This document shows, one piece after another, positions 2,282 through 24,473 of a DNA stretch of 64,000 nt. Position 1 is the stretch's first letter. Each line of letters begins with the position of its first letter. Location: assembly GCA_937924775.1 (NCBI GenBank), contig CALDUT010000004.1, positions 1-64,000 on the forward strand, given 5' to 3'. The notes beneath the pieces were generated by a model. The model searched no databases. It saw nothing but the letters and a program-made list of their open reading frames with translations, and was not told the origin of the DNA. Both the position numbers and the translations under genes were made by a program. This stretch comes from an uncultured Gemmata sp. (lineage in GTDB: Bacteria; Planctomycetota; Planctomycetia; Gemmatales; Gemmataceae).

Positions 2282-2319
2282 GTGGGCGAGCTATCAGTAC
2301 TTGGTTCGTTCCCTACTGG

Positions 2320-2346: not shown

Positions 2347-2374
2347 GACGGTGGAACCCCTATTTTCCGACTTA

Positions 2375-3526: not shown

Positions 3527-3607
3527 TGCAAATCCTCACATCATTGATGGATAACAGGTTTTTCAACTCCGGGGGATCAACGGGGAATCCTGGTCGGATC
3601 TTCGGAT

Positions 3608-6157: not shown

Positions 6158-8380
6158 ATGCCACGCTTACAAGCCTTACTGGAGTGTGTTGGGCAAGCCC
6201 TGTGCGAAAAAGGGCGCAAAGCCCTTCAAGGGCAATGGCCATTCGCTGATGTGATGCTCGATGTGGCCCGTGTGGCCTTCGATTATGCCCACAAGAAACT
6301 ACCAGGAGATGACCTGCGCGCCGCCCTGGCCGAGTGCGCCGCGGTCGATCCTGACGAATATGAACGGCGGTTGGGTGAACTGCTGACGGAACTCTGCACC
6401 ACCCATGCTGTGCCGAAGGCGGAACTGATCAGCTATCTGCGGGCCTTCCCGGTTACGGTGCGTCAGATTCTCCGACGCCCCTCCAACGCCGACGGCACCA
6501 GCGTGCCCGAAAAACTGACACTGGCAAAACCCGAAGAATTCGCGGTTTTCCTGCCGCCGCGAATCCCACGGTTCCGCCCCGGCGACAAACCACCCGGCCT
6601 CGATAACTGGACACTCGTTTCTCTCCGCGGATTGGGGCAAAACTCCGAAGTCTGGCGCGGGGAAGACCCCACCCAACCCCACCTCTCTCCGGCCGCTCTC
6701 AAATTCGTCATCGACACCGAATCGCAAGAGCGGGTTAAAGCCAATACCGAACTGTTCACCCAGGTTTTCGATCTCAATGACATCCCCGGGATTCTTCCGC
6801 TGCGGTCGGTTTATCTCGATACCTACCCGCCGTGCCTCGAAGCCCCGTTCGTCTATGGCTACGATCTGGCCGGGCTGATGTTCGATTGGAAGTGGCGCTA
6901 CGATTCGCCCAAACCGGAAGCGGCCCTCAAATTGATCCGCCGCTTGGCGGCGATTGTGGCCAAAGCCCACGAAAAAGGCATCATTCACCGCGATCTGAAG
7001 CCCAGCAATGTGTTGCTTCACCCCACCGAAGGCGGCAAATTCACCATGTGGGTCAGCGATTACGGGTGGGGGCAGATCGAGAGTGTCCGGGGGCTGGAAT
7101 TGGCCAAAAGCGGCCCCCGGGGCGAGCAGATTCTTTTAGCTGAACGCGGAGCTGCGACCAGTCTGTACGCCTGCCCGCAGCAGGTGAAACGCGAACCGCC
7201 CGCACCCACCGACGACGTGCATGCCATCGGCATGATCTGGTACCAGTTGCTCCGTCGCGATCCCACGGTGGAAGCCCCGTTCGGTTCCGAATGGATTGAG
7301 GAATTGCGGCCCTTTGGTTTTACCGATTCCCAAGCCCGGGTTTTGCAAGCCTGCCTGAGTACCCGTGCCGATAAACGCCCCAAAAACGCCGCGGCTTTGG
7401 CCGAAAGCCTCGCTACGGTCACGGTCGCTCCCCCCAGCGCGACCGGGCCCGACGGTTCGAAACTCATCACCCTCGCGGGCCCCGGGTCGGCGATCTATAG
7501 GCCCGCCCCGGCCGCCGCGCCGGCGGTCATCACCAGCCGCGGCAAAACCTACGATCTCGAAGCCGCCGCCGGGGCCGCCGCCGCGCTTTTGTCGGCGGCC
7601 GGCGGGGGCCCGCTGAGTGCCGGTCCGCGGTCCTCGACCGTCGGCGGCCATATGCGGCTGATCAAAAACTCCATCGGTATGACTTTCGTGCGTATCCCCC
7701 CGGGCCGGTTCCTAATGGGCGACGATACCTCCGGACGATCCTTTGAAGGACCGGTCCATGAAGTGAAAATCACCCGGCCGTTCTACATGTCGGTTGTGCC
7801 CGTGACCCAAGCACAGTACGAAGCCGTCAAAGGAAAGAATTGCAGCAAATTCAACAAATACCACGGCGGGGGGCCGGATCATCCGGTGGAAAACTGTACC
7901 TGGGCGCAAGCCGTCCGCTTCTGCGACAAACTGGGGCGAATGCCCGAAGAGCAGGTTCACCGGCGCATCTACCGCTTGCCTACGGAAGCGGAGTGGGAAT
8001 ATGCCTGCCGGGCCGGAACCACCACGGATTTTTCCTGCGGCGATAAGCTCACGGGGCAAGATGCTCTCTTCGCCACCTCCGGGCACAAGCAATCCGGGAA
8101 ATCGACCTGCCCGGTGGCGCAATTTCTGGCCAATCCTTTTGGTCTGCACGACATGCACGGCAACGTCCAAGAGTGGGTGAACGATTGGTTCGATGAATAC
8201 TACTACTTTGAAAGCCCCGTCGAAGATCCACCGGGGCCCAAAACCGGGCAACTTCGCGTCGTGCGCGGAGGCTGCTTCGGCATGCTCCCGATCGATTGCC
8301 GCAGCGCGGCCCGCCGCGGACACGACCCCGATTCACCCTCAGAAACCATCGGCTTCCGCGTGGTGATGGAAGTGCAATAA
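6158..8380 (+). CDS. Ser/Thr protein kinase fused to an FGE-sulfatase-type domain
   Basis: A 740-residue fusion. Residues 1-140 form an unrecognised helical region. Residues about 150-420 form a Hanks-type kinase with a weakened glycine loop (GLGQNSEVW), Lys182, the catalytic HRDLKPSN (Asp279), DYG in place of DFG (Asp301) and no normal APE motif. A Pro/Ala/Gly-rich linker follows at about 440-510. The last 230 residues match the formylglycine-generating-enzyme/SUMF1 fold (IPPGRFLMG, RLPTEAEWEYACRAG, GNVQEWVNDW, VRGGCFG, CRSAARRG, GFRVV). In such fusions the C-terminal part is often non-catalytic and may bind a ligand. The start at 6158 (MPRLQ) follows GGAGG and is preferred over the upstream ATG at 6107. 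It is probably cytoplasmic, since no transmembrane segment is seen. Confidence 0.85.
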   Translation: MPRLQALLECVGQALCEKGRKALQGQWPFADVMLDVARVAFDYAHKKLPGDDLRAALAECAAVDPDEYERRLGELLTELCTTHAVPKAELISYLRAFPVTVRQILRRPSNADGTSVPEKLTLAKPEEFAVFLPPRIPRFRPGDKPPGLDNWTLVSLRGLGQNSEVWRGEDPTQPHLSPAALKFVIDTESQERVKANTELFTQVFDLNDIPGILPLRSVYLDTYPPCLEAPFVYGYDLAGLMFDWKWRYDSPKPEAALKLIRRLAAIVAKAHEKGIIHRDLKPSNVLLHPTEGGKFTMWVSDYGWGQIESVRGLELAKSGPRGEQILLAERGAATSLYACPQQVKREPPAPTDDVHAIGMIWYQLLRRDPTVEAPFGSEWIEELRPFGFTDSQARVLQACLSTRADKRPKNAAALAESLATVTVAPPSATGPDGSKLITLAGPGSAIYRPAPAAAPAVITSRGKTYDLEAAAGAAAALLSAAGGGPLSAGPRSSTVGGHMRLIKNSIGMTFVRIPPGRFLMGDDTSGRSFEGPVHEVKITRPFYMSVVPVTQAQYEAVKGKNCSKFNKYHGGGPDHPVENCTWAQAVRFCDKLGRMPEEQVHRRIYRLPTEAEWEYACRAGTTTDFSCGDKLTGQDALFATSGHKQSGKSTCPVAQFLANPFGLHDMHGNVQEWVNDWFDEYYYFESPVEDPPGPKTGQLRVVRGGCFGMLPIDCRSAARRGHDPDSPSETIGFRVVMEVQ

Positions 8381-8497
8381 GATAGTTAGCCCCCTGACAG
8401 ATGTCGCCAGGGAGCCTTAACGGCTTCTTAACCGCGGCCGCGACCCGCTTCGTTCACGAATTCCTGTGGTGTTGCGCAGGCGATAGAAAATTGACCT

Positions 8498-9898
8498 TCA
8501 GCGGCCCAGCAGGAATCGCAAAGCCATCTCCAAATCGGTATGCTCGAATACGAAGCCGCTGGCTAAGAGCTTCGCCGGTTGGACCTTCATACTGGCGAGC
8601 AGGGCTTCGTCCGCCACCTCGCCAAAGATCACCCGCAGGGCCGTACCTGGCAGCCACAGAAACGCCGGACGACTCAAAACTCGGCCCAAAGTCTTGGTGA
8701 AAGTCTGGTTCGTGACCGGGTTCGGACTCACCAGGTTCACCGGGCCTACGAGAGAGTCGGTGAAAAGAGCATGATGAATGGCCCCGATCAGATCGTGCAG
8801 AGTAATCCAGGGGGTCCACTGCTGCCCGCTGCCCAGAACGGCTCCTCCACCCATGCGGAAGGGCAGCAGTTGTTTGCCCAAAGCGCCCCCCTGGGGCGTG
8901 AGAACCACCCCGATCCGCAAATGGACCGTGCGGACAGCTGCCGCCTGCGCTGGCTCGCCTGCGGCTTCCCAAGCTCGGGCCACCTCCGGCAAGAACCCCT
9001 GACCGCTCGCCGATTCTTCCGTGAGTTTCTCCTCGCCCCGGTCGCCATAGTAGCCCACCGCGGAAGCACACAAAAACACCTTCGGACGGCGTTCCGCGGG
9101 CGTGGCCGCGATCGCCTCCGCGATGTGCCGGGTGGGAATGGTCCGGCTGTCCATGATTTTCCGCTTCTTGTCGTCGTTCCAGCGGCCTTCGGCCACATTC
9201 TCGCCAGCTAAATGAATGACGGCGTCGATGCCGTCGAAGATCCCCGGTGGCAGTGGCGCTTCGGGCTTCCACGCGATCCACGTCGTGCCGTCGTCGTAGG
9301 GAGGCGTTGCAGAACCGGTGACCAAACGCACCACCGAATGTCCCCCGGTGGCGAGGAAGGGCACCAGTTGCGAGCCGATGAGTCCGCGGCTGCCGGTGAC
9401 GGCGATCGTCTGCCGCGGACGGTCACGGAACCGCCGGTGGCGTTGGAGATCGCTGGCCGTCAGTGTGTGCCGGTAGCGGAACATCGCGGCCAGCCGCTTT
9501 TGGACCCAACAATCCCCGAAAAGCCGCCCCACCATCCCCAGCGGCAGGCGATATTCGATGTGATCTTCCAAAAACGACGCCTCTTCCCCATGGGGAATCA
9601 TCCGGTGCGTGTGATGCCAAAAGGCGAACGGGCCGCGGAGCTGGCGATCTTCAAACTGCCGCCCCGGTTGGAAGCCAAAGACTTCCGCAACCCACGTTGT
9701 CGCCAATGGCCCCACGGTGGCAGCCCGGATGGTCACGCGCAGACCCTCGGTTCCGAAGGTTCCCTCCTGCCGGACGATTTCCGCGCTCTCCCACGGTGGT
9801 TGCAGTCGCTGAAATGCCAGCGGGCGAGCATGCCACGCGTACAATTCTTCCGCCGACACGGGCATCGGCGAACGCAGGGTGAATGTGGAGTGGGGCAT
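8498..9898 (-). CDS. SRPBCC domain fused to TIGR01777-type epimerase (SDR family)
   Basis: A 466-residue two-domain protein. Residues 1-150 resemble an SRPBCC (START-like) ligand-binding domain. Residues about 163-460 are a TIGR01777/SulA-type extended SDR with the dinucleotide motif GSRGLIGSQL, followed by GIDAVIHLAGENV and the family-typical SAVGYYGDRGEE. The usual single-domain protein is about 300 residues; the SRPBCC fusion is a known variant. The substrate is unknown. The gene is divergent from hutH with 66 bp between starts, so the two may share a regulatory region. Confidence 0.85.
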   Translation of the reverse strand: MPHSTFTLRSPMPVSAEELYAWHARPLAFQRLQPPWESAEIVRQEGTFGTEGLRVTIRAATVGPLATTWVAEVFGFQPGRQFEDRQLRGPFAFWHHTHRMIPHGEEASFLEDHIEYRLPLGMVGRLFGDCWVQKRLAAMFRYRHTLTASDLQRHRRFRDRPRQTIAVTGSRGLIGSQLVPFLATGGHSVVRLVTGSATPPYDDGTTWIAWKPEAPLPPGIFDGIDAVIHLAGENVAEGRWNDDKKRKIMDSRTIPTRHIAEAIAATPAERRPKVFLCASAVGYYGDRGEEKLTEESASGQGFLPEVARAWEAAGEPAQAAAVRTVHLRIGVVLTPQGGALGKQLLPFRMGGGAVLGSGQQWTPWITLHDLIGAIHHALFTDSLVGPVNLVSPNPVTNQTFTKTLGRVLSRPAFLWLPGTALRVIFGEVADEALLASMKVQPAKLLASGFVFEHTDLEMALRFLLGR

Positions 9899-9964
9899 GG
9901 TCCAGGTCCGAAGAGTCGCACTCGCGGTGCTGGGCTGGCATCGCAGGTGCGGAGGTTAACCGCA

Positions 9965-11470
9965 ATGAGTGTTCCGCGTATCACGATTCGGCATTTATAC
10001 ACGGATTTAGCCGCCAGTATGGCGTATTTCGCCCACGATTCCTCCGCGGTGGAATGGAGCCGGGCGCGGGTGGAGGCGGCGTTGGCCGATGGGCAAGCCC
10101 ACTATGGCGTCAATACCGGCTTTGGAGCTTTGGCTCGCTGCCGGGTGGCCGACGATCAACTAGTCACACTGCAACGCAATTTGCTGCTCAGCCACGCTGT
10201 GGGGGTAGGGGATCCGGTACCGGTCGAGATTACGCGACTCATGCTGCAACTGAAAATTCATGCTTTAGGCTTAGGTTACTCCGGCATTTCGCTCGCGGCC
10301 TTCCGCCGTTTGCTCGATTTTCATCAGAATAACCTCGTGCCGGTGGTGCCCAGTCGCGGCAGTGTCGGGGCCTCGGGCGATTTGGCCCCCTTGGCGCATC
10401 TGTGCTTACCGTTGATCGGTTTAGGCGAATTTTGGGACGACGAAGGGAAAGGGAGCATCCCGGCGGCCGAGGTCCTGCGTTCCCACGCCTGGGCTCCCGT
10501 GGAATTGGCCCCCAAAGACGGGTTGGCCCTCATCAACGGCACACAGCTGATGTCGGCTTATGGGGCGTATGTGCTGGAACGTTGCAGCCGGCTGGTGGAT
10601 TATTTCGATCTGGCCGCGGCCATGTCGCTGGAGGCCCTGCAAGGTAGTATCCAGCCGTTCGATGAGCGGATTTACGCGGTTCGCCCACACCCGGGGCATG
10701 GGGTGGTTGCTGCCCATGTCCGCTTCTGGTTGCAAGAGAGTGAAATTCTCGAATCGCACCGCCATTGCGGCAAAGTGCAAGACCCATACTGCCTGCGGTG
10801 TGTACCCCAAGTGCATGGGGCCAGTCGCGATGCACTGGCGTATGCCACCCGCGTACTCGAAACGGAAATCAATGGCGTGACCGATAACCCGCTGGTGTTC
10901 GACAACGGCGAAATTGTTAGCGGGGGCAACTTCCACGGGCAGCCCCTGGCCCTGGCGCTCGACTTCGCAGCCATAGCACTGGCCGAGTATGCCAGCATTT
11001 CGGAACGCCGCATCTATTTGCTGCTCGAAGGTCACGATGGTTTACCGCGGCTGCTGATGCGGGAAACGGGGCTGAATTCTGGCTTCATGATCCCGCAGTA
11101 CACAGCCGCGGCTTTGGTCAGTGAAAACAAGGTACTGTGCCATCCGGCGAGCGTCGATTCAATTCCGACGAGTTTGGGTCAGGAAGATCATGTGAGTATG
11201 GGCAGTGTCGCGGCCTTGAAGTTGCTGCGGGTTTTGCGCAATGTGGAAATGGTCTTGGCGATCGAGTTCCTGACGGCGGCGCAGGCCCTCGACTACCGCC
11301 TCCCGTTGCGACCCGGCCGTGGGGTCGAACGGGCGCACCAGTGTATTCGCAGTGTCACCCAGCACCGCGAGAGCGATTATCTGTTCCAAGAGGATTTGCA
11401 ACGGATCGGCGAGCTGATCCACACACGAACCCTGCTCGACGCCGCCGGTCTGCCTCAAGACGGACCATGA
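9965..11470 (+). CDS. hutH: Histidine ammonia-lyase
   Basis: A 501-residue aromatic amino acid lyase that deaminates L-histidine to urocanate, the first step of histidine breakdown. The MIO cofactor-forming triad Ala-Ser-Gly is at 136-138 (SVGASGDLAPLAH). The N-terminal YGVNTGFG motif, NGTQLM and the FHGQP motif are all present. The start at 9965 follows GGAGG (9951-9955). The open frame continues far upstream, but that part is antisense to the SDR gene and is not used. No hutU, hutI or hutG lies next to it, so the gene is separated from the rest of the pathway. Related lyases acting on Tyr or Phe have similar sequence, and the HAL assignment is the most likely. Confidence 0.9.
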   Translation: MSVPRITIRHLYTDLAASMAYFAHDSSAVEWSRARVEAALADGQAHYGVNTGFGALARCRVADDQLVTLQRNLLLSHAVGVGDPVPVEITRLMLQLKIHALGLGYSGISLAAFRRLLDFHQNNLVPVVPSRGSVGASGDLAPLAHLCLPLIGLGEFWDDEGKGSIPAAEVLRSHAWAPVELAPKDGLALINGTQLMSAYGAYVLERCSRLVDYFDLAAAMSLEALQGSIQPFDERIYAVRPHPGHGVVAAHVRFWLQESEILESHRHCGKVQDPYCLRCVPQVHGASRDALAYATRVLETEINGVTDNPLVFDNGEIVSGGNFHGQPLALALDFAAIALAEYASISERRIYLLLEGHDGLPRLLMRETGLNSGFMIPQYTAAALVSENKVLCHPASVDSIPTSLGQEDHVSMGSVAALKLLRVLRNVEMVLAIEFLTAAQALDYRLPLRPGRGVERAHQCIRSVTQHRESDYLFQEDLQRIGELIHTRTLLDAAGLPQDGP

Positions 11471-11566
11471 GCCGCCGTGCAGGACCGCACCGACGTCCTC
11501 AGACCCAGGAACGAGGGAATCCCCGGGCGCCGGCTCGGTGTGACCGACTGTACTGGTCGCAAGATG

Positions 11567-11590
11567 GCGGGCATGCGGGCCGATGCCCGC
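11567..11590. terminator. Hairpin after hutH (convergent genes)
   Basis: GCGGGCAT-(8)-ATGCCCGC is a perfect 8-bp stem about 95 bp after the hutH stop, between two convergent genes. No T-run follows, so termination is inferred from position only. Confidence 0.35.
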
Positions 11591-11687
11591 ACGATCCGCG
11601 GACTGCCGAGGAGCATGCCCGCGCAAAACGCCAGCGCAGGTCTTTTCAAGGGTTTGGAATTGTAGCTTCATCGTGCTTATCGCCGGT

Positions 11688-12536
11688 TCACTTCTTGTCA
11701 GGAAGAGCCTCGAATTTCAGCTTCATTGTGCCTTTGGCATCCACCGTTTGATCGCCCGTAACGAGTTGGAACGTGACATCGACATCGGCGGTTCCGGACG
11801 TCCATTCTTTGCGCTGGGTGTCGTACAGCAGCGCCCCCTTCAAGTTGTACTTGGCGTCTTTGATGACGCCGCCGCCTTCGGCTTTTACATTGTCGGCATG
11901 GAGTATGCCGGTGGCTTGAACGGTCTGGCCCTCACGGCCTCCCGCCACTTTCTTGAGTGTGACGGTTCCGGTGGCTAAACCTTGCCCCGCACTGACACTG
12001 CTTTCCGTTTCCCATTGCTCTTTATCCGCGAAGTAGGGGGGGTGGAAGAAGGTGGCGTTGGCAATCATTCCGGTATCGATGGCGATTTTCGCCCCCGGCT
12101 TGGCGAGGATTGTTCGTTTGAGTTCTTTACCGTTGGCATCCACTTCGATCTTGCAGAGCGGGGTTTCGAACGTGTCGCGGAGCAGTGTTTGGAGTTCTTC
12201 AGGGGCTTCCTCGAAGGGGATGTTCAATTTTCGGCCTGCCTGCACACCGAACATGCCAGCCCGGCTCATCGTGGTTTTCATCAGCTGCCGGTTGCCGGCT
12301 TTCATGTCCACTTCCAAGGTGAAGAGGGCCAGTGTGCGGGTAGAGCCCTCGGTTTTCCATTGGTACTCGAAGCCGCTGTAAGCTTTCAACGTCTCGCTCT
12401 GACCACCGGCTTGCATGGTGAAGTCGGAGTCGACCCCGAGTTTGAATTTATTGACCGTCGCCGGCGGATCCGCCGCCAGACTCTGCAGACTCATCGCGGC
12501 ACACGCCGTGACGGTGGCGACAAAGCGAATCCACAT
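11688..12536 (-). CDS. Secreted protein of unknown function
   Basis: A 282-residue protein with a Sec signal peptide (hydrophobic stretch followed by SLAADPP, cleavage near residue 21). The rest is rich in beta-strand patterns (DSDFTMQAGGQSETL, GQGLATGTVTLKKV, SGTADVDVTFQLV) and has no recognised catalytic motif. It lies 28 bp downstream of the kinase gene at 12565-14055 on the same strand, so the two are probably co-transcribed and may be functionally linked. A GAAAGGAG precedes the ATG (GGAGaattcc on the sense strand). Confidence 0.7.
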   Translation of the reverse strand: MWIRFVATVTACAAMSLQSLAADPPATVNKFKLGVDSDFTMQAGGQSETLKAYSGFEYQWKTEGSTRTLALFTLEVDMKAGNRQLMKTTMSRAGMFGVQAGRKLNIPFEEAPEELQTLLRDTFETPLCKIEVDANGKELKRTILAKPGAKIAIDTGMIANATFFHPPYFADKEQWETESSVSAGQGLATGTVTLKKVAGGREGQTVQATGILHADNVKAEGGGVIKDAKYNLKGALLYDTQRKEWTSGTADVDVTFQLVTGDQTVDAKGTMKLKFEALPDKK

Positions 12537-12564
12537 GGAATTCTCCTGAAATGAAAGGAGGGGG

Positions 12565-14055
12565 TTACTCGCTATTAGCGAGCGGCTGATCGGCAGGTAC
12601 CAATTCCCGTAATTTTCCCAGCAATTGCTTCATCGTGATGCCGGGGTCGACCAAAACCACCGTGTTCGGTCCTTCCCGGACCAGGCTGCGCCAGGGCGTT
12701 TGCTCCTCGGAGAGGAGCAGAAAGGCACTCACTTCCATGCCGACCTGACCGGCGATGCGGAGAACGTCGTTGAAGGCATCGACGCCTTCCCGGCCCACGG
12801 TCCGAGCATCCACGATCAGGGCGTGATAAGCCTGCTGTTTGTAGCGTTTAGGAGCCTGGGTGGGGTCGATCGACAGCCACACGCGATAGCCCCGTTCGCG
12901 GAGTTTTTCCCGGAACGCATCCTGTAATTTGGGGTTTTGCTCGACCACGAAAACCGTTTTCGGCCCGATCGGGTTGCGGTTCTCGGTTCCCTGTGTTGTC
13001 AAGTCGACACGGCAAGCCTGAACAGCTTCGAGGAGCTGCCCTGGGGTTTGGAAGCGTTGGGTCGGATCGAAAGCGACCATCCTGGCCAGCAACCGCATCA
13101 CCAGCGGGGGGATGCCCAACTGCGGACCGCGAAGGCGCAGAGTGTCTTCCACATCCCGATAGCGTTGCGGTTGCATCCGGGCCTGGCGGTCGCGGGTCAC
13201 GGGCATCAGTGGTTCTCCGGTCAGGCATTCATATAGCACGCAACCGAGAAAGTAAATGTCGCTGCGGACGTCGCCGGGTTTCTGCCCGGTGGCTTTCTCC
13301 AGACCCGCGTAATCGACTGTGCGGTCCACCGCGACGTCTTCATCCGCTTCGATTTGCCGCTGCAAATGCACGGCCGTACTGGAGCTGATTTCCGCCAAGC
13401 CGAAATCCACCAGTTTCGCTTGCCCGGTGGGAACGGCAATCAAAATGTTCGTTGGTTTGATGTCGCGGTGCGTCAATCCGCGCGTGAAGGCGTAATTCAG
13501 CCCCTGAACGCATTCATCGAGAATCCGCAGGGCTTCATCAGCAGCGAGCTTTTTGCGGGCTTGTAACAAATCCCGCAGGTTCCCGCCTTCGATAAACTCC
13601 ATGACAATGAAGTATTGACCGGTTTGCGCGTCCTGATTGACTGCCAGAACCGAGACGATGTTCGGATGGCGAATCGACAAACCCAGGCGGCCTTCCCGCA
13701 TGAACAGGTCGACCTTCTGTTTGTCCATCGTCCACTTGTTGCGCAGAACCTTGACGGCCACCACCTGCCCGGTCCGCGGGTCGTCGCCACGGTAGACGCG
13801 GCCAAAGCTCCCAGAGGCGATTTTGTACAAAATCCGGTAGCCGCCCAAAAAATAGCCATCAAGATCGCCTTTGAGCAGCTTCCGCGCTTGCCAGGGCGTG
13901 AGGTATTTGCGCCGTTCAAACAGCCGGATGAGGTCTGCCGCGGGGGCTTTTTTGTCGTCCAACTCCGTCAGGCATTCGCGAACTTGGTCGTCGCTGACCA
14001 AACCCAGACGCAACGCGAGTTGACCAATACCAGAAGCATCAAGATTAACAGACAT
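12565..14055 (-). CDS. Ser/Thr protein kinase with C-terminal pseudo-receiver domain
   Basis: A 496-residue protein when started at MSVNLD (14055); an upstream in-frame ATG at 14088 is less natural. Residues 1-65 form a small helical domain ending in TPWQARKLLKG, a lead-in often seen in planctomycete kinases. Residues 70-345 are a Hanks kinase with GSFGRVYRG, Lys102, HRDIKPTN (Asp198) and DFG (Asp217). Residues about 366-486 resemble a response-regulator receiver (KTVFVVEQN, ALIVDARTV with Asp416, FLLLSEE). The acidic pair is reduced to Glu-Gln, and the conserved Lys is replaced in VLVDPG. The receiver is therefore probably not phosphorylated in the usual way. No transmembrane helix is seen. 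Confidence 0.87.
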   Translation of the reverse strand: MSVNLDASGIGQLALRLGLVSDDQVRECLTELDDKKAPAADLIRLFERRKYLTPWQARKLLKGDLDGYFLGGYRILYKIASGSFGRVYRGDDPRTGQVVAVKVLRNKWTMDKQKVDLFMREGRLGLSIRHPNIVSVLAVNQDAQTGQYFIVMEFIEGGNLRDLLQARKKLAADEALRILDECVQGLNYAFTRGLTHRDIKPTNILIAVPTGQAKLVDFGLAEISSSTAVHLQRQIEADEDVAVDRTVDYAGLEKATGQKPGDVRSDIYFLGCVLYECLTGEPLMPVTRDRQARMQPQRYRDVEDTLRLRGPQLGIPPLVMRLLARMVAFDPTQRFQTPGQLLEAVQACRVDLTTQGTENRNPIGPKTVFVVEQNPKLQDAFREKLRERGYRVWLSIDPTQAPKRYKQQAYHALIVDARTVGREGVDAFNDVLRIAGQVGMEVSAFLLLSEEQTPWRSLVREGPNTVVLVDPGITMKQLLGKLRELVPADQPLANSE

Positions 14056-14263
14056 ACCCGCGACGATTGGAGAATGAAAGAAAATCACCGCATCAGGTCG
14101 GCTCTGGATACCTTACCACTGCCGGGCCACTCACGCAATTGGCCGCGGATCGCTTCACTGTGAGGATTTCGCCCACCGTCGGCATAGCCCCACCCCAGCG
14201 GGACCCGCCTCAAGGGGGGGCACTGGCCCCATTCTGAAGAACAACCTCAAGGGATACAAAGAC

Positions 14264-15019
14264 TTAGAACGAAACTCGCGGCGGCACCAGTTCGTACACC
14301 GCGACTGGTCGCGGATCCGAACCGCCTCCCAGCGACCAACGGGCATAGCGCACCTGCCAACCCGCGGCTTCCAGGCTCTCCAGAAGCCGCAAGCTCGACG
14401 GTCGGTAAGGGTCCGCGATCAGCAACCGGCCCCCGGGGGCCAAATTCGTGTGGAAAATGTGCCGCAATTGGTCATGCAGCGTATCGGCATACAGAATATC
14501 CGACCCGATGATCCAATCGTAACAGGCACGATCAGTCCATTCCGCCCAATCCGCGACCCGGTATTCGATACTGTGAATGCCGTTGCGTTCGCCGTTCATC
14601 CGACTCACGGCAAGGATCAACTCCGAGCGATCGGTTTGAACGACCCGAGCCCCCAACGCTGCGGCCACCAATCCCGGCAGCCCGGTCCCGGCTCCCAGCT
14701 CCAGCACCGAGTGGCCACGAAATTCCCCGGCCCGTATCGCAATGTCATGGGCCAGGGCAATTGCCGCCGGCCACAGGACGATGCCATAAGGGGCCCGATT
14801 CTCAGTTTGATGGAGAAACCGCGTTTCTTCCTCCAGGCTGATGACCGTGGTGGTATGCAGAAGGGACAGTTCCCGGTCGCCCACCCTCAGTCGGCATTCT
14901 GCCAGTGGGAAATCCCCCATGCTAGTACCCAGAACCGGCGGCTGTTGCGCACCCTGCATTGTCATCATCCTGCGGTGGATCCGCGAGAGTGCCGAAAGGA
15001 GACACCCGCGAGCGGTCAT
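14264..15019 (-). CDS. SAM-dependent methyltransferase (METTL21/FAM86-like)
   Basis: A seven-beta-strand methyltransferase of 251 residues if started at 15019. The SAM-binding motif I is VLELGAGTGLPGLVAA. An acidic loop after strand 2 (VVQTDRSE) and the motif DWIIGSDILYAD follow, as in the lysine-methyltransferase group containing METTL21 and FAM86, which suggests a protein substrate. The ATG at 15019-15017 overlaps the TGA of the upstream gene (ATGA), supporting translational coupling. Later Met codons (near MGDFPLAE) are alternative starts because the first 45 residues show little conservation character. Confidence 0.75.
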   Translation of the reverse strand: MTARGCLLSALSRIHRRMMTMQGAQQPPVLGTSMGDFPLAECRLRVGDRELSLLHTTTVISLEEETRFLHQTENRAPYGIVLWPAAIALAHDIAIRAGEFRGHSVLELGAGTGLPGLVAAALGARVVQTDRSELILAVSRMNGERNGIHSIEYRVADWAEWTDRACYDWIIGSDILYADTLHDQLRHIFHTNLAPGGRLLIADPYRPSSLRLLESLEAAGWQVRYARWSLGGGSDPRPVAVYELVPPRVSF

Positions 15020-15516
15020 CGCCGCCGCGCGTGGTCCCAACACCACGCAAACAGCAAATCCCACTCGAGCTGTTGTACGCGTTGGGCGATGGCTTCGTCT
15101 TCGCGGCCCGTGTCGCGGACGCGCTCACAGAAGTCCACAAAAGCTTCGGGCGACGTGAACGCATAACCCACACCGGGGGCGGATTCCCGCAATTGCGTCA
15201 GTACTGGGTGGTTCCCCACGCGGCGAAACCAATACTTGCTGTTCCAGGCATCCGGTTCCCGACGATGCATGATGGCATGCCAGAAATTCCGATCCGGATC
15301 GCTTTCATCGGCTTGACTGATGGCATGGGATTCGTCAAGGAAGTCGAAACGCAGCCACAGACCCGCGGCACAGGACGGCGGCAGCTCTGTGCAAACCGCC
15401 GCGATCGACGCCCGCAGCGGCTCACACGCCCGCCCCGGGCCCAGCGCCACGGGATGGTCCACGCAGAGTAATTCCCTCACCGCAGCCGGATAGTTCGGCA
15501 TCACCCGATTCTCCAT
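15016..15516 (-). CDS. Conserved-looking hypothetical protein, coupled to methyltransferase
   Basis: A 166-residue soluble protein with no recognised domain. It is rich in Trp, His, Asp and Arg (for example DRNFWHAIMHRREPDAWNSK), a composition typical of real folded proteins rather than chance frames. A four-base ATGA overlap links it to the methyltransferase, which may modify it or act with it. Weakly protein-like sequence continues upstream in another frame (see 15422-15715), so the true N-terminus is not certain. Confidence 0.6.
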   Translation of the reverse strand: MENRVMPNYPAAVRELLCVDHPVALGPGRACEPLRASIAAVCTELPPSCAAGLWLRFDFLDESHAISQADESDPDRNFWHAIMHRREPDAWNSKYWFRRVGNHPVLTQLRESAPGVGYAFTSPEAFVDFCERVRDTGREDEAIAQRVQQLEWDLLFAWCWDHARRR

Positions 15517-15982
15517 GACGCCATTGCTCCACTCGGTAATCGACGTTGTATCGCCAGAGCCATTGATCTACCATCCGTGGTTCGGGCCCACAACACCCTG
15601 AAGCAGGCAAATTCGGCCCCAGATAAAAGTCGGTGGCGTTGATTACCCAGGAGTTCCTACCCCCAGCCCCTTGAGATGGCAAACCTGGGTCGGGATTACC
15701 CCCACCAGCTCCCATCGGGCGATCGTGTCCCGGGTTCGGCAGGATACCGGACCGAAGGATTTCGGCGTCAAACCCAAATGGTGGATCGGGAAGCAGACGT
15801 CTGGGCGGCTGAACTCGGTACCGCTACTTGCCTAAAGACTATGAGCGGACCACGCCGAGCTGCAGCCCGTTTATGTCTGTGGCGAAGATCCCTAGGATGC
15901 TCCGCCGCCTCACAAGCTAATCTTGCTTTGAGGACAGGCTTTTCGGGAAGTGGCCCTCGCGGGGCTTCCTCGCCGTTAGGGA
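15517..15982. other. Region without a clear gene
   Basis: About 465 bp between two minus-strand genes. A minus-strand frame entering from 15715 contains a stretch that looks protein-like (VINATDFYLGPNLPASGCC), but it lacks a plausible full-length gene. Nothing else is identified. A GC-rich region near 15950-15975 could aid termination of nearby transcripts. Confidence 0.4.
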
Positions 15983-17221
15983 TCAGCCGGTTTGGGGAAG
16001 CCCGGTGGTGGCTTTGAGCATTTCCAAGAGCTTGTGGGCACATGCCGTGGCGAACGCCGGGTCGTTGATGTGGTTATCGAGTTCCACCACCTCGACATTT
16101 GGGGCGATCCAATGGCGTAGACTTGCAAAAAGCGCGGCATCCGCTTCCGGCCACCAGAACGGTTTTCCTTCGGCATCAATCGCGGAAACACCCTTCAGTG
16201 GAATCATGACGCAGGTGGGGCCGCGGGCGGCGCTGGTTTTTTCCGCAATGCTTTTGCCAAGGCGATCCATTTCCTCGGGTGTGGTCCGCATCAGCGTGAC
16301 AGTCGGGTTATGCTGATAGAGCAACCGGTGCTTGTACCGATCGGGTACACTATCGCGGGGGCCGAAGTTGACCATGTCGAGCGCGCCGAGGGAAACCACT
16401 TGGGGAATGCCTTTCAAGCCCGCGGCCGTGAGTCGATCCGCGCCGGCACTGAGAATGCCGCCGGCGAGTTCATCGGCCAATTCGGTTGTGGTGATGTCGA
16501 GAACACCAGCCAAAAGCCCATCGCGGATCAGCTCTTCCATTGTCCGGCCGCCGGTACCGGTGGCGTGGAAGACCAACACTTCATACCCCGCGGCTTCGAG
16601 AATGCCCCGTGCGATTTCGACACACGGCGTAGTGACACCGAACATAGTCGCGGCAATCACCGGTCGATCGATCCCCTCCACGGGTGTCGGGCGAGCCTTC
16701 GCGACAACCATACCGGCCATCGCGGCGATGGCATTATCGAGTACCGCACGACTGATACGATTGATTCCGGCGATGTCCACCACCGAATACATCATCAGGA
16801 TGTCGCGGGTGCCGACGTAGGGCTGGACCGGCCCGCTGGCGAGCGTGCTGACCATCAGTTTGGGAACACCGACCGGCAAGGCCCGCATGGCGGCGGTGCC
16901 GATGGTGGTTCCCGCGGAACCACCGAGACTCAGCACCCCCGTGATTTTCCCTTCGCTATAAAGTTGCGAGGCGATCTTAGCCACCCCCACTGCGGCCCGT
17001 GCGATGGCTTGGCCGCGATCCTGGGTGGCTTTCACCTGGTCGTAATTCGCGCCGGCGGCGGAAAATATACTCTCGCGTGAAATATCCGGCGTGAATGCCG
17101 GTGGCCCGATCACGCCGGCATCAGCGACCAATACCGGTACGCCCGTGGCCCGCAGTTGATCGCGGACATAGGCGAACTCCTTCCCTTTCGTATCGAGCGT
17201 GCCCACGAGCAAGACGGCCAT
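15983..17221 (-). CDS. UPF0261 / Tm-1-like ATP-binding domain protein
   Basis: A 412-residue protein matching the UPF0261 family from end to end: MAVLLVGTLDTKGKEFAYVRDQL at the start, the nucleotide-binding-type GGSAGTTIG, MVSTLASGPVQPYVG, the ATMFGVTTPCVE region and VFHATGTGGRTMEELI. In the tomato antiviral protein Tm-1 this domain is joined to a TIM-barrel domain. A protein matching that second half is encoded nearby at 17911-18771. In bacteria the biochemical role is not settled, and a metabolic role is likely. It is transcribed away from the small membrane protein gene, leaving 71 bp between starts. Confidence 0.88.
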   Translation of the reverse strand: MAVLLVGTLDTKGKEFAYVRDQLRATGVPVLVADAGVIGPPAFTPDISRESIFSAAGANYDQVKATQDRGQAIARAAVGVAKIASQLYSEGKITGVLSLGGSAGTTIGTAAMRALPVGVPKLMVSTLASGPVQPYVGTRDILMMYSVVDIAGINRISRAVLDNAIAAMAGMVVAKARPTPVEGIDRPVIAATMFGVTTPCVEIARGILEAAGYEVLVFHATGTGGRTMEELIRDGLLAGVLDITTTELADELAGGILSAGADRLTAAGLKGIPQVVSLGALDMVNFGPRDSVPDRYKHRLLYQHNPTVTLMRTTPEEMDRLGKSIAEKTSAARGPTCVMIPLKGVSAIDAEGKPFWWPEADAALFASLRHWIAPNVEVVELDNHINDPAFATACAHKLLEMLKATTGLPQTG

Positions 17222-17292
17222 AGTCTGTCTCCGCGAACAGGTTTTGCGTGTTATGTTACACCAGAAGCCCCGCGGCCTCCGCGAGAATTGCC

Positions 17293-17724
17293 ATGCATCC
17301 GCTGCTCCACCGTATTGCGTTCCACGGCACGATCACCGCGATCGTATTGGCCCTTGTGGGGCTGATTTTGGCCGAGATGGCCGAATTCTGGACCGCCAGT
17401 ATGGCCGTTCGTCCCGGTTCGGCCGACCTGAACTTCCCCGTGGCGCAAGAGTTACGCGCCACGATGCCCATGCGGCTGGCGGCGTTCGGGTTCGCGTTTA
17501 TTGTGGTGGCAGAATTTTCACTTTATGCATTCAGTCGGCACAAGCCGGTAGCGGTACACACTTCACCGTCGCCGGACGACGCGGAGAAACTCCTTAACGA
17601 GCTGTTGGCCCAGGCCGAAGCCCGCATGGCCGCGACCAACACCGATACCGCAGCGCCCACCGAAGCCGAAACTCACTCAGTCAACGACCCCCCCGCCGTT
17701 GTCGGTCCAGCCAAATCCGAATAA
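17293..17724 (+). CDS. Small membrane protein of unknown function
   Basis: A 143-residue protein with two hydrophobic segments (about residues 10-28 and 57-80) separated by a short loop, and an acidic, Ala/Thr-rich C-terminal tail with an apparent helical stretch (AEKLLNELLAQAEARMA). The start at 17293 gives a basic residue before the first transmembrane helix. No domain is recognised. It sits between the two halves of the Tm-1-like module and is probably transcribed in the same direction as the TIM-barrel and kinase genes. Confidence 0.6.
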   Translation: MHPLLHRIAFHGTITAIVLALVGLILAEMAEFWTASMAVRPGSADLNFPVAQELRATMPMRLAAFGFAFIVVAEFSLYAFSRHKPVAVHTSPSPDDAEKLLNELLAQAEARMAATNTDTAAPTEAETHSVNDPPAVVGPAKSE

Positions 17725-17910
17725 TCCCCGGCTTCCACACCTTTTGCCACCCCTGTGGCCATCGGGGACGCTCAATCCCAATACTGTCTGCGGTCTCCGC
17801 TTCCCCGGAGGGCCGTTGGCTGTTGAGCTTCTCAGTGACTCGCAGTACGTACCCGTTATGTGTATGCTGTGGGGGTTCGGGCATCCGTAATGGTGGGGGG
17901 AAATGTCATC

Positions 17911-18771
17911 ATGCCTTTGCGTACTGAAATTCTGGCTCGTTTGCGGCAGCAGGTGGCCGCGGGGATTCCCATTATCGGCGGTGGGGCCGGTACCGGGATT
18001 TCTGCCAAATGTGCGGAAATGGGCGGTATTGATCTGATCATCATTTACAATTCGGGTCGTTTCCGCATGGCCGGGCGCGGGTCGCTGGCGGGCCTGCTTC
18101 CCTATGGCGATGCTAATCAGATCGTCATGGACATGGCCCGCGAGGTGCTGCCCGTGGTTCAACATACCCCGGTGCTAGCCGGCGTGTGCGGGACCGATCC
18201 GTTCCGCATCATGAAACGTTTCCTGTTGGATGTGAAGGACGCGGGTTTCGCCGGTGTGCAAAATTTCCCTACTGTCGGGCTATTCGATGGAACCTTCCGC
18301 ATTGGCTTGGAAGAAACCGGCATGGGCTACCAGCGGGAAGTGGACATGATCGCTCAAGCGCGCGAATACGATCTGCTCACCTGTCCGTATGTCTTCACCC
18401 CCGAGGAGGCCGCGGCGATGGCCCGCGCCGGAGCCGATCTTCTTATTCCACACATGGGATTGACCACGAAAGGCAGCATCGGGGCGAAAACCGCCCGTAC
18501 ACTGGAACAGAGCGCCCGCTGTGTCCAAGAATTGGCTGACGCGGCCCGAGCCATCAATCCCGAAATTCTTGTCCTTTGCCACGGCGGGCCAATTTCCGAA
18601 CCCGACGACGTGCGATACATTCTCGAACACACACACGGGATTGTTGGCTTCTTTGGGGCTTCCAGTATTGAACGGCTACCCACTGAAGTCGCGATCACCC
18701 ACTGTGTCCAGCAGTTCAAACAACTGAAAGTGAACTCACGGCCGATGGCGTCCGGCAGTTCCCACAACTGA
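17911..18771 (+). CDS. TIM-barrel protein, PEP-hydrolase-like / Tm-1 C-terminal domain family (PF09370 type)
   Basis: A 286-residue barrel enzyme. It shows [31 protein letters not shown] near the N-terminus, [10 protein letters not shown], a [12 protein letters not shown] strand-loop, and CHGGPI followed by [12 protein letters not shown] near the C-terminus. The family corresponds to the C-terminal half of plant Tm-1 and to phosphoenolpyruvate-hydrolase-like proteins. The start at 17911 is preceded by a G-rich tract (GGTGGGGGG) that may serve as ribosome binding site. The FGGY kinase begins 57 bp downstream, so the two form an operon. The exact reaction is unknown. Confidence 0.87.
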
Positions 18772-18827: not shown

Positions 18828-20336
18828 ATGTCTCAACCGCTACGCTGCGTGCCCATCGATGCCTTGATCGTCGGCTACGATTTCAGCACCGGTGGTGTGA
18901 AAGCGCTGGCCTTCGATCGCGACGGCAACACCGTGGTGCAGGTGCGTCTGCCCACCGATTTATGGACCGAGGGCGGGGTGTCGGAACTGAATCTCATGCA
19001 GCTGGAAGGCCAAGTGCGGGCCGCCACGCGGGCGATTTCCGAAGCGCTACCCGAAGGTTCGCATCCCTGCTGGCTGGCCTGTGGCATTTCGGCCACCCAC
19101 CACACCGCGGGGCGTATCGGCTGGCGCGGCAATCCCATCCGCCGGGCCATTTGCTGGAACGACCAAACCCTCGCTCCCTATCACGCGGAAGGCTTGAAAC
19201 GGCTCGGTGGTCAACAGCGGGCTTTAGCACTCACCGGTGGCCCGTGGGCGGTCCGCTACTCGCTGACCCATTTGGTGAAAGACGAACACACCCTCAGCGA
19301 GGCCGATTGGCGTCGGACCAAGGCTATCCTGACACACGGTTCGCTGGCCGCAGGCTACCTGACCGGCCGCTTTGATTGCACCAGCATTTCTTCTGCCGCT
19401 TCCACCGGCATTATGGACTTACGCACCAATCAGTGGCGGAAGGAAATGCTCGAGGCTATTGCCAACCGGGAATACCGCGAATGGGCGTGGCGATGTTTGC
19501 CGACCATCCTCACCGATATGAACCAGCCGGTGGGTCCGATGGCTGATCACGTCCGCCTCGATGCTATGCTCGGCCATGCCCAGCCCCTGGTTTTCCCCAC
19601 CCTCGACGACCAGGCCGCGGGGCTGATCGGCGGGGGGGCGGTGGATGCGGGGCAGGTGGCGATCATTCTGGGCAATTCCGCGGTGGTGAATTCGTCATCA
19701 TCACAATTGCCCCAATCCGGCAACCTCGACGCTATGAAACTCAATTGGGGGCCGTATCTGTGGATGCGGTGTTACTCCAACGGAGCGTTGTTCGTGGATA
19801 CCGTGGCGGGCAAGGATTGGTACACGCTCGAAGCGGAGGCTGCCCACGTTCCGCCGCGATGCCAGGGCGTGAGTGTACTGCCGTTTTTGCTCTCAGAGCC
19901 GTCGATTGGCGTTGAACAGCCTCGGGTGCAGTGGACGCCCAGCGAACCCACAGATCGCGCCGTTCGCGTGCGGGCCTGCTTGGAGGCACTGGCGTTTCTG
20001 CTGGCGCGGGCAGTGAAGGAGCATGAAACCGCGGGGCAGACGATCACGCGGATCACCGTTTCTGGCGGTATGGCCCGGAGCCATTTGATGTGCGAAATCC
20101 TGGCCAGTGTTCTCAACCGCCCCCTGGAACGGTTGGTTTCGGACGAAGGCCCGGCGTTAGGAGCGGCCGTGGTGGCACTGGCGGGGTTGGAGTCGTACTT
20201 GCGGCGGCAACGGGGCATGGCCGAACCCTACACCGCGGCCGACGCCGTCGCGGCTATGGTGAAGTTCCGCGATCGGGTCGAACCTGTTCCGGCGTGGGTG
20301 GCGGCGTACTCGGGGGAACCACCGCCTTTCGTCTGA
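18828..20336 (+). CDS. FGGY-family carbohydrate kinase (xylulokinase-like)
   Basis: A 502-residue sugar kinase. It has the N-terminal ATPase-fold motif VGYDFSTGGVKALAFD, the ICWNDQT segment, and the C-terminal ITVSGGMARSHLMCEILASVLNRPLE signature region followed by GPALGAAVVA. The family phosphorylates sugars or polyols such as xylulose, ribulose, glycerol or gluconate. Which one cannot be told here, and no isomerase or transporter lies beside it. The start at 18828 follows CGGGAG. It is placed directly behind the Tm-1-like barrel gene and probably acts in the same pathway. Confidence 0.87.
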   Translation: MSQPLRCVPIDALIVGYDFSTGGVKALAFDRDGNTVVQVRLPTDLWTEGGVSELNLMQLEGQVRAATRAISEALPEGSHPCWLACGISATHHTAGRIGWRGNPIRRAICWNDQTLAPYHAEGLKRLGGQQRALALTGGPWAVRYSLTHLVKDEHTLSEADWRRTKAILTHGSLAAGYLTGRFDCTSISSAASTGIMDLRTNQWRKEMLEAIANREYREWAWRCLPTILTDMNQPVGPMADHVRLDAMLGHAQPLVFPTLDDQAAGLIGGGAVDAGQVAIILGNSAVVNSSSSQLPQSGNLDAMKLNWGPYLWMRCYSNGALFVDTVAGKDWYTLEAEAAHVPPRCQGVSVLPFLLSEPSIGVEQPRVQWTPSEPTDRAVRVRACLEALAFLLARAVKEHETAGQTITRITVSGGMARSHLMCEILASVLNRPLERLVSDEGPALGAAVVALAGLESYLRRQRGMAEPYTAADAVAAMVKFRDRVEPVPAWVAAYSGEPPPFV

Positions 20337-23318: not shown

Positions 23319-24473
23319 CTATTCGGCACGCTGTGCCCGTGTCTGAGCGTAGCTTTCTTCGAGCCGTCGCGTCAACTCTGTTAGGCGATCGAACAGCCGC
23401 TTGGGCGGGCGTTGGGCGCAACGCGTAAGTGCATAAGCGGTTAAGAGCGGTAAGGCGATGGTGGAATCGACGTAACAGGTAACGGAATCCGGGAGTTTAT
23501 CCGGATCGACTTTACCCCAGGTCATGGCTTCGCTGGGAGTGGCCCCCGAAAGACCACCGGTATCGGGCCGGGCATCGGTGAATTGCAGGAAATAGTCGTG
23601 CCCGGCTTCCGTAAGTCCTAACACTTCTTGGATTTGTGGTTCGGTTTGCAGCATGAAGTTCTTGGGGCTACCGCCGCCGAGAATCAGGACCGAACTAGTA
23701 CCGCCGTGGACTTTCGCATCCCAAACAATCGCCGCGCTTTGGTTGACGTCGCGGAGCGGATCGATCCGCAATTGAGACCCTTCAAGCATCAAAGCGGCCA
23801 AGTTCATCCCAATGCTGCTATCCCCGGGAGAACTGGTGAATACTGGTACGCTGTGGCGGTAGCAGGCTGCGAGGAGATTCTTCCCTCCCAGACCGGTTTG
23901 TTGTTCTCGTTCGTGAAGGTATTTGCCCACCAAGTGGTGGAATTCCGCCGTGCCCATCGTTTGCTGGAAGTCCTTGCCGCGGCAGAGTTTGCGGAAAAAC
24001 TGATCGGTCCCGAGCAGATTTTCATAGTCGAAAACAATGTCGTAGATACGGATCACTTGGTTTTCCCGGAGTTCATGATCCGGCAGATTCGGCCCGGCTT
24101 GATAGAGGTCCATACCGAGGGCGTAATGCGTATCGTGGTAGAGGTTGGCCCCGGTGGAGACGATCCAATCGATGAAACCGGCTTCCACCAGCGGAACCAG
24201 GCACGAAATGCCCAACCCCGCGGGTGTGAGAGCCCCCGAGAGCGCCAACCCCACCGTGCCGTTGTTGGCCAACATTTTCTTGACGAATAATTGGCAGCCT
24301 TCGCGGAGCCGCCCGCCGTTGTAGGAGAGAAAGGCGCTATCGATGAGGTCGGCGGCGGAAGTCCCGGCCACGATAGCCTTGGGGTCGATGCGCTCGCGGC
24401 TGATCCGTTGGAGGAACTGCTTGTTTTGCGGCGTGCCGGGCTGGCGGTGGTAATGAGGCTTGTGGGGATGCAT
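23319..24473 (-). CDS. Deoxyhypusine-synthase-like protein
   Basis: A 384-residue member of the deoxyhypusine synthase family, an NAD- and spermidine-dependent aminobutyl transferase fold. It shows the NAD-site-type [12 protein letters not shown], the [17 protein letters not shown] segment, [18 protein letters not shown] containing the Lys that forms the enzyme-substrate imine in eukaryotic enzymes, and a long conserved N-terminal half ([12 protein letters not shown]). Bacteria lack eIF5A, so the product cannot be hypusine on that protein. Some bacterial relatives are reported to make homospermidine, which is a reasonable guess here. It is the leading gene of a probable two-gene unit with the protease. 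Confidence 0.88.

What the first reader, a model, noticed from the sequence alone, without database searches (positions are those of the whole stretch)
15983..18771. Split homologue of the plant antiviral protein Tm-1
The tomato ToMV-resistance protein Tm-1 joins a UPF0261 (Tm-1-like ATP-binding) domain to a PF09370-type TIM-barrel. Here the two halves are separate proteins encoded in opposite directions about 700 bp apart, with a sugar kinase directly behind the barrel gene. This supports a bacterial metabolic origin for Tm-1 and may show the ancestral pathway, possibly sugar-acid breakdown ending at a PEP-like intermediate.
Basis: partly seen in the sequence, partly recalled or inferred. Interest (0 to 1): 0.62.

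Follow-up and report, generated by a model that had tools for sequence, protein, structure and literature searches.

The report
Bacterial ancestor-type pair behind Tm-1
Two neighbouring genes in a planctomycete bacterium are separate relatives of the two halves of the tomato virus-resistance protein Tm-1; the kinship was already published, but recent structures suggest that one half is a small-molecule kinase preparing a substrate for the other half.

Summary
15983-17221(-) is a full UPF0261 protein and 17911-18771(+) a full PF09370 TIM barrel ("TBST"); each family has one match in this genome. Separate bacterial genes, co-occurrence, a fusion origin of Tm-1 and a planctomycete source are already published (PMC5028733, 2016). 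Added here: (1) the pair is a conserved operon across phyla (67 of 71 named loci: UPF0261 before TBST, one strand); the close head-to-head layout was seen only in the window and two near relatives. (2) The FGGY sugar kinase behind the barrel is not conserved there, so the sugar-kinase pathway is unsupported. (3) UPF0261 is probably itself a kinase: its nearest non-Tm-1 structure, 9MPY (Saro_1862), holds acetovanillone, and a 67%-identical relative lies in a carboxylase/HAD-hydrolase/beta-keto-cleavage operon, the layout of pathways begun by phosphorylation. (4) Tm-1's N-half carries the residues of the TBST-linked class and groups with planctomycete proteins encoded directly before TBST, the order of the Tm-1 fusion. 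Best reading: a kinase followed by a phosphate-binding, lyase/hydrolase-like barrel; substrate unknown, barrel chemistry inferred. This makes Tm-1's native enzymology testable.

The parts
15983..17221 (-). UPF0261 protein (homologue of the N-terminal half of Tm-1); proposed ATP-dependent small-molecule kinase
   Evidence: Pfam PF06792/PF23189; Tm-1 3WRY 7.7e-91 and Saro_1862 9MPY 1.2e-69 by sequence; model pLDDT 95.5, Z 46.4 to 3WRW and 33.6 to 9MPY
17911..18771 (+). PF09370 TIM barrel (TBST; homologue family of the C-terminal half of Tm-1); proposed to act on the phosphorylated product. ORF opens at 17860
   Evidence: Pfam PF09370 1.6e-130; 2P10 1.4e-112; model pLDDT 83.2, Z 38.9 to 2P10 and 17-21 to a phosphate-site TIM barrel and to PEP-mutase-type enzymes
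17248..17724 (+). Small ORF between the two genes, 158 aa, two apparent hydrophobic segments (read by eye); function unknown; part of the local arrangement only
   Evidence: No Pfam match; homologues in the same place in L072 (29%) and L073 (40%)
18828..20336 (+). FGGY carbohydrate kinase directly behind the barrel gene; listed because the finding names it, judged NOT a conserved partner. ORF opens at 18774
   Evidence: FGGY_N/FGGY_C, far below the XylB cut-off; orthologues elsewhere not linked to the pair

Best explanation
The two proteins are a conserved metabolic pair, not a defence system. The UPF0261 protein is an ATP-dependent kinase that phosphorylates a small metabolite (inferred from the Saro_1862/MarK branch of the family). 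The PF09370 barrel, a phosphate-site TIM barrel with PEP-mutase/isocitrate-lyase-like topology, then acts on the phosphorylated product, most likely by cleaving or rearranging it (inferred). The substrate of this TBST-linked class differs from acetovanillone and is unknown. Plant Tm-1 descends from the TBST-linked class and is such a pair fused in operon order; ToMV inhibition is a later use of its kinase half. The FGGY kinase next door is a chance or lineage-specific neighbour. Shown: families, co-occurrence, operon order, class residues, tree position of Tm-1's N-half. Inferred: kinase activity of this member, barrel reaction, order of steps.
For: Families and single copies. Co-occurrence 40 of 40 UPF0261 genomes among 199; 71 of 80 named TBST loci carry UPF0261 in the fetched stretch, 67 of the 71 in UPF0261->TBST order, and 8 of the other 9 genomes have UPF0261 elsewhere. 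9MPY is titled 'Saro_1862, a UPF0261 domain protein ... with bound acetovanillone'; [quoted passage not shown] L176 encodes a UPF0261 protein 66.8% identical to Saro_1862 between a thioesterase and a beta-keto-acid cleavage protein on one side and three carboxylase components and a HAD hydrolase on the other, with no TBST in the stretch; PMC13101465 describes the Hpe/Acv pathway as kinase, three-component carboxylase and phosphatase. Of 70 positions conserved in at least 98% of 57 UPF0261 proteins from TBST loci, Saro_1862 keeps 49, among them D10, K12, E15, H219, D242, E247, R263, D282, N305, R312, N386. Tm-1 keeps 56 of the 65 it covers, and at the 20 comparable positions where Saro_1862 differs it sides with the TBST-linked class at 16; at M193, F194, T198, T244, N285, F286, L310, M311 window, Tm-1 and L042 agree and none of four TBST-less proteins does. 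Barrel fold neighbours. Neighbour genes are catabolic and transport genes, AP_endonuc_2 at least 10 of 257 near versus 2 of 131 far, ABC_tran at least 17 of 257 versus 4 of 131. No PADLOC match for the four window proteins.
Against: No activity is known for any TBST-linked UPF0261 or any PF09370 protein in what I could read. MarK = Saro_1862 is my inference; the MarK paper (Hall 2025) is not held. Saro_1862 is only 37% identical to the window protein, and the 9MPY match has rmsd 7.0 A over 390 residues. In two TBST-less relatives, L177 and L180, some shared residues (T246, D250, R312, S346) differ, so these need not be catalytic. A Thermomicrobium cluster holds the pair together with a PEP/pyruvate-binding protein and a PEP-utilizing enzyme, that is another possible kinase pair. 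Some regulators carry their own PF09370 domain, which would also fit a sensing role of the barrel. The mixture-model tree gives Tm-1 + L042 + L051 only 83/89, against 99/90 for Tm-1 + 10 planctomycete rows without the mixture.
Confidence: 0.55

Rival explanations
1. One reading: the barrel and the FGGY sugar kinase form a sugar-acid breakdown route ending near PEP, with UPF0261 as an accessory ATP-binding protein.
For: The FGGY gene directly follows the barrel gene. FGGY genes also follow the barrel in L088 and L091 (acetogens) and stand on the other strand in L087: 3 of 72 immediate downstream genes. Aldolase (HpcH_HpaI, 5 of 59 immediate upstream genes) and sugar-isomerase-like neighbours recur.
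Against: Close orthologues of the window's kinase in 3 of 199 genomes, adjacent only in the window, once without the pair at all. No kinase match in the stretches of L072, L073, L074. The kinases of L088 and L091 match it only over short stretches at 30-36%.
Confidence: 0.1
2. One heteromeric enzyme: UPF0261 and the barrel form a complex that catalyses a single ATP-dependent reaction (ligase, lyase or carboxylase type), so neither is a stand-alone kinase.
For: Near-strict co-occurrence, operon order and the natural fusion in plants; PMC5028733 reports correlated distances of the two families (r 0.77 in bacteria) and suggests interaction.
Against: Saro_1862-type UPF0261 proteins lie without TBST (L176; also L177, L180, stretches only), and several TBST genes lie on another contig or elsewhere in the genome than UPF0261. 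These do not exclude a complex.
Confidence: 0.2
3. The barrel is a ligand sensor ('TIM-barrel signal transduction') rather than an enzyme, tuning UPF0261 or transcription.
For: PF09370 is fused to AraC-type HTH in L119; 6 of 59 immediate upstream genes have PF09370, with sigma-54 or AraC domains recurring in that set; similar ORFs of about 600 aa stand beside the pair in several planctomycete loci.
Against: The stand-alone barrel has no DNA-binding part and about 80 invariant positions in 61 close relatives, many polar, as expected of an active site; regulators often reuse an enzyme fold to sense its ligand.
Confidence: 0.12
4. The bacterial pair is itself an antiviral (anti-phage) system like the plant protein.
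For: Only the analogy with Tm-1.
Against: No PADLOC match for the four window proteins; metabolic neighbours; no TBST in 50,697 phage records at tblastn 1e-5. The virus-binding segment of Tm-1 is a recently selected region in a wild tomato (PMC5028733 introduction).
Confidence: 0.02

Closest known systems
Tomato Tm-1 (3WRV, 3WRW, 3WRX, 3WRY) and plant Tm-1-like proteins
   Same: UPF0261 half homologous over its length (Z 46.4 to 3WRW, 43% identity in 386 aligned residues); plants are reported to add a TBST domain (PMC5028733)
   Different: Plants have one fused protein; here two genes on opposite strands. Tm-1's N-half is nearer to another planctomycete group (L042, L051) than to the window
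Saro_1862 (9MPY), probably MarK, of Novosphingobium aromaticivorans
   Same: Same UPF0261 family and fold (Z 33.6), 49 of 70 conserved positions kept
   Different: 37% identity; no TBST in the homologous operon L176; differs at class-specific positions, so another substrate is expected
Mll9387 (2P10), annotated putative phosphonopyruvate hydrolase
   Same: Full-length PF09370 match, Z 38.9; its gene (MAFF_RS36495 in L154 is the likely one) also stands directly behind a UPF0261 gene
   Different: On a rhizobial plasmid with cupin and Gfo/Idh genes behind it; its own activity is not established in what I read
Hpe/Acv pathways (HpeHI or AcvAB kinase, three-component carboxylase, phosphatase)
   Same: Logic: phosphorylation first, then carbon chemistry; UPF0261 stands in the kinase's place in L176
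   Different: The window pair has no carboxylase or HAD phosphatase gene beside it (ORFs); HpeHI is an unrelated ATP-grasp/swivel kinase (PMC12167813 abstract)
PEP mutase / phosphonopyruvate hydrolase / 2-methylisocitrate lyase / oxaloacetate acetylhydrolase superfamily
   Same: Barrel topology, Z 17-19
   Different: Sequence identity 13-19%; 4ML9 (uncharacterized barrel with phosphate site, Z 20.6) is nearer; the superfamily signature KKCGH (recalled) is not visible in the barrel

Membership tests
UPF0261 (PF06792 + PF23189) | Full-length match to both domain profiles over the curated cut-offs | tested here: met
   218.2 and 319.1 bits against cut-offs of 27
PF09370 PEP_hydrolase / TBST | Full-length profile match over the cut-off | tested here: met
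   434.5 bits against 33.8; positions 1-267 of 267
Tm-1-like two-domain protein | Both domains in one polypeptide | tested here: not met
   Two ORFs on opposite strands, 638 bp apart
Tm-1-like, N-half | Homology to solved Tm-1 and the residues of the same class | tested here: met
   7.7e-91 to 3WRY; Tm-1 equals the TBST-linked consensus at 56 of 65 covered positions
Tm-1-like, C-half | Homology to the barrel of Tm-1 itself | not testable with these tools
   No plant barrel sequence in reach; PDB search found only 2P10
Saro_1862/MarK-type UPF0261 kinase | Shared fold and conserved polar positions | tested here: met
   Z 33.6; 49 of 70 positions
Saro_1862/MarK-type UPF0261 kinase | Residues of the acetovanillone class at class-specific positions | tested here: not met
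   Window differs from Saro_1862 and L176 at M193, F194, T198, T244, N285, F286, L310, M311
Saro_1862/MarK-type UPF0261 kinase | Phosphorylation activity | not testable with these tools
   Needs an assay
PEP mutase/isocitrate lyase superfamily | Superfamily barrel topology | tested here: inconclusive
   Z 17-19 to members, but also about 17 to IGPS, NanE-type and other phosphate-binding barrels
PEP mutase/isocitrate lyase superfamily | Catalytic metal ligands and signature loop in place | not tested
   No residue-level structural superposition was made; only the printed sequence was read
Known anti-phage defence proteins (PADLOC) | Profile match | tested here: not met
   0 families for 4 window proteins at 0.001
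FGGY xylulokinase (XylB) | Equivalog cut-off | tested here: not met
   140.3 bits against 380.25; FGGY superfamily itself met

The most novel reading that the evidence does not exclude
Tm-1, a virus-resistance protein, is a fused two-step catabolic enzyme: an ATP-dependent small-molecule kinase (N-half) feeding a phosphate-site TIM-barrel lyase/hydrolase (C-half). The fusion arose from one transfer of an already adjacent, collinear UPF0261-TBST operon from a planctomycete-like donor, rather than from two independent transfers as published.
Probability: 0.3. Interest if true: 0.7.

Novelty: new member of a known kind. Interest (0 to 1): 0.42.

Why it matters
The native function of Tm-1 and of its near-universal plant relatives is unknown (PMC5028733). 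If the TBST-linked UPF0261 proteins are kinases, that function becomes directly testable with ATP and phosphometabolite screens in two small bacterial proteins. It would also explain why the virus-inhibiting half binds ATP (the ATP-binding name is a database label; the detail is recalled). The operon order in the planctomycete group nearest to Tm-1 offers a simpler origin, one transfer and then fusion, which a plant-barrel tree can confirm or reject.

Tried and rejected
Sugar-kinase pathway: tested by orthologue search and in relatives, rejected as a conserved link. Cupin as a third core gene: an early clustering put it beside TBST in 33 loci (and note 1); that cluster was over-merged. A strict recount gives 15 of 79 named loci and 2 of 39 phylum loci, one of the two being a 427-aa ORF 189 bp away and doubtful, so it is an optional neighbour. 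Prokaryotic fusions of the two domains: long ORFs spanning both (e.g. L106, L135, L138) proved to be over-extended frames of the barrel, not fusions; no dedicated search for fusions was made. Anti-phage role: no PADLOC match, no phage record with the barrel. Literature: UPF0261 5 papers, 'Tm-1-like ATP-binding' none, Saro_1862 none, combined MarK/UPF0261 terms one, At5g66420/Tm-1L/SlTm-1 11, most of them unrelated; nothing found there states a reaction for the TBST-linked pair, but most subscription papers are not held. Co-occurrence outside this phylum with whole genomes could not be sampled. Fold rows other than those named were not pursued; families missing from the lists are not thereby excluded.

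Results against my reading: Chloroflexota cluster with another possible kinase pair; PF09370 in regulators; weaker support for the planctomycete position of Tm-1 under the mixture model; residues that vary in L177/L180; the TBST-less rows form one side of the tree only at 90/68, and the program warned of long branches meeting. The TBST tree also drew long-branch warnings, and the ten loci nearest to Tm-1 by UPF0261 are not one clade there (3 changes), so joint inheritance of the two genes in that group is not shown. L074, in the window's TBST clade, has no UPF0261 on its 6.7-kb contig (one elsewhere in the genome), so the divergent layout is not even fixed in that clade. Rows dropped: trees used chosen subsets (77 of 113 available rows; 47 rows; 87 of 133); neighbour tallies used 72 of 76, 59 of 65 and 126 of 128 near genes and 131 of 229 far genes; gene calls came from a home-made classifier with training accuracy 0.91, so the tallies are rough. 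The 40 phylum stretches were chosen by me from 60 places listed.
Full report
What is there. The window carries, head to head, a UPF0261 gene (15983-17221, minus) and a PF09370 barrel gene (17911-18771, plus; the ORF opens at 17860). Both are full length and far over the Pfam cut-offs, and each family has one match in this 4.8-Mb genome. The UPF0261 protein matches solved tomato Tm-1 (3WRY, 7.7e-91) and 9MPY (1.2e-69); the barrel matches 2P10 (1.4e-112). Between them lies a small ORF (17248-17724) conserved in place in L072 and L073; behind the barrel lies an FGGY kinase.

What is already known. PMC5028733 (main text and methods read) reports that prokaryotes and most fungi encode the two domains in separate genes, that 491 of 504 bacterial genomes with TBST also have UPF0261, that the families co-evolve, and that plant UPF0261 falls within planctomycetes, and it proposes two independent transfers followed by fusion. 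A profiling paper lists COG5441-COG5564 among the top fungal pairs (PMC8963296, one passage). So 'a split homologue supports a bacterial origin of Tm-1' is not new.

How tight is the pair. In 199 genomes of the phylum 43 have PF09370, 40 have UPF0261 and 40 have both. In 80 named TBST loci from several phyla (the best 80 of 584 confirmed relatives, so biased to close ones) 71 have UPF0261 in the fetched stretch: 67 in the order UPF0261->TBST on one strand, 2 reversed, 2 on opposite strands; matched regions lie within 250 bp in 65 of 71. Eight of the nine remaining genomes have UPF0261 elsewhere. In 40 phylum stretches 35 have both: 26 in UPF0261->TBST order, 8 reversed, 1 opposite at 5 kb. Close head-to-head copies were seen only in the window, L072 and L073, its closest relatives with both genes in reach (TBST clade with L074, 100/99). 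The window is therefore an unusual rearrangement of a conserved operon, not a picture of the ancestral state.

The sugar kinase. Matches at 60% identity or more occur in the window, G167 (which has no pair) and G145 (pair on another contig), 3 of 199 genomes. L072, L073 and L074 show no kinase match in the stretches held. FGGY domains are found in 3 of 72 immediate downstream genes of the named loci. It is most simply a neighbour.

What UPF0261 does. The model (pLDDT 95.5) is closest to Tm-1 (3WRW, Z 46.4) and to 9MPY (Z 33.6, rmsd 7.0 over 390), titled Saro_1862, a UPF0261 domain protein from Novosphingobium aromaticivorans with bound acetovanillone; below these, UDP-GlcNAc 2-epimerases match the N-domain at about Z 12. 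[quoted passage not shown] That MarK is Saro_1862 is my inference. Independent support comes from L176, a Sphingobium plasmid: a UPF0261 protein 66.8% identical to Saro_1862 stands between thioesterase and 3-keto-5-aminohexanoate cleavage genes and three carboxylase components plus a HAD hydrolase, the set that PMC13101465 gives for kinase-initiated hydroxyphenylethanone pathways, with UPF0261 in the kinase's place. L180 pairs another UPF0261 gene with a HAD-IA hydrolase. So the family contains a kinase branch, and 49 of 70 highly conserved positions are shared with the TBST-linked branch.

Two classes. At M193, F194, T198, T244, N285, F286, L310 and M311 the window, Tm-1 and L042 agree, and Saro_1862, L176, L177 and L180 all differ. 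Tm-1 sides with the TBST-linked class at 16 of 20 comparable positions where Saro_1862 departs. Tm-1 should thus be asked about the TBST-linked substrate, not acetovanillone.

What the barrel does. The model (pLDDT 83.2, with two weak loops) is nearest to 2P10 (Z 38.9), then 4ML9, an uncharacterized barrel with a conserved phosphate site (20.6), then PEP mutase, phosphonopyruvate hydrolase, 2-methylisocitrate lyase and oxaloacetate acetylhydrolase (17-19), with other phosphate-binding barrels at about 17. A phosphorylated ligand fits; the reaction is not shown. PF09370 also occurs joined to AraC and in genes directly upstream of the pair (6 of 59), so a sensing use of the same ligand is likely in regulators.

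Surroundings. Near genes (257 scanned) against far genes (131 scanned) of the named loci: AP_endonuc_2 at least 10 against 2, ABC_tran at least 17 against 4, Cupin_2 at least 13 and HpcH_HpaI at least 5 (neither in the far list's first 25), PF09370 at least 6. A cupin follows TBST directly in 15 of 79 named loci. Annotated plasmid loci show sugar or branched-chain-type ABC transporters, Gfo/Idh, MmgE/PrpD, cupin and GntR or IclR regulators in changing mixtures. This suits catabolism of varied small acids, not one fixed pathway.

Origin of Tm-1. The tomato N-half (residues 90-428) is most similar to L051 and L042 (54-55%) and falls with ten planctomycete rows at 99/90 under LG+G4; under the mixture model it stands with L042 and L051 at 83/89 inside a 13-row group (100/100) that also holds proteobacterial rows. 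In all ten planctomycete loci UPF0261 lies on the same strand directly before TBST, matched regions 29-93 bp apart, the domain order of Tm-1. One transfer of an operon followed by fusion is therefore an economical alternative to two transfers. I could not test it, since no plant barrel sequence was in reach, and in the TBST tree the ten loci are not one clade.

Verdict. Real, correctly recognised, largely published; the pathway proposal with the sugar kinase fails. The useful advance is the kinase reading for the UPF0261 half and the class residues that tie Tm-1 to the TBST-linked branch.

Noticed in passing
17248-17724 (+); L072:1306-1851; L073:771-1163: Small ORF (130-181 aa in the ORF calls) with two apparent hydrophobic segments and a conserved DxEKxLxELxAxAEA stretch, kept between the divergent genes in the window and two relatives; no Pfam match for the window copy.
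   Followed up: partly
L034:6861-8618, L042:6624-8795, L036:3943-5703, L119:6417-7607 and others: ORFs of about 400-730 aa with their own PF09370-like domain stand beside the pair, divergent from it in several planctomycetes; L119 is PF09370 + AraC HTH, suggesting that the regulator senses the barrel's ligand.
   Followed up: partly
L179 (Thermomicrobium roseum plasmid) 8992-18158: UPF0261-TBST in one cluster with branched-chain ABC transporter, cyclase family, fumarylacetoacetate hydrolase, xanthine-dehydrogenase-type genes and a PEP/pyruvate-binding + PEP-utilizing pair that recalls two-component dikinases.
   Followed up: no
L180 (Shinella plasmid) 397-10928: A TBST-less UPF0261 gene beside a HAD-IA hydrolase and a homoprotocatechuate (hpa) gene set; possible further kinase/phosphatase route for an aromatic compound.
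   Followed up: no
L093, L103, L104, L107, L121, L127: An HpcH/HpaI aldolase-type gene stands close to UPF0261 in this set of mostly planctomycete loci (cluster; Pfam match shown for L104).
   Followed up: partly
23319-24473 (-): Deoxyhypusine synthase family protein (PF01916, 6e-67), a family best known from eukaryotes and archaea (recalled), in this bacterial window.
   Followed up: no
L156 (Serratia plasmid pJSRIV004_1) 8905-9732: Orphan TBST gene near IS6 transposases on a conjugative plasmid, with no annotated UPF0261 gene in the stretch shown.
   Followed up: no
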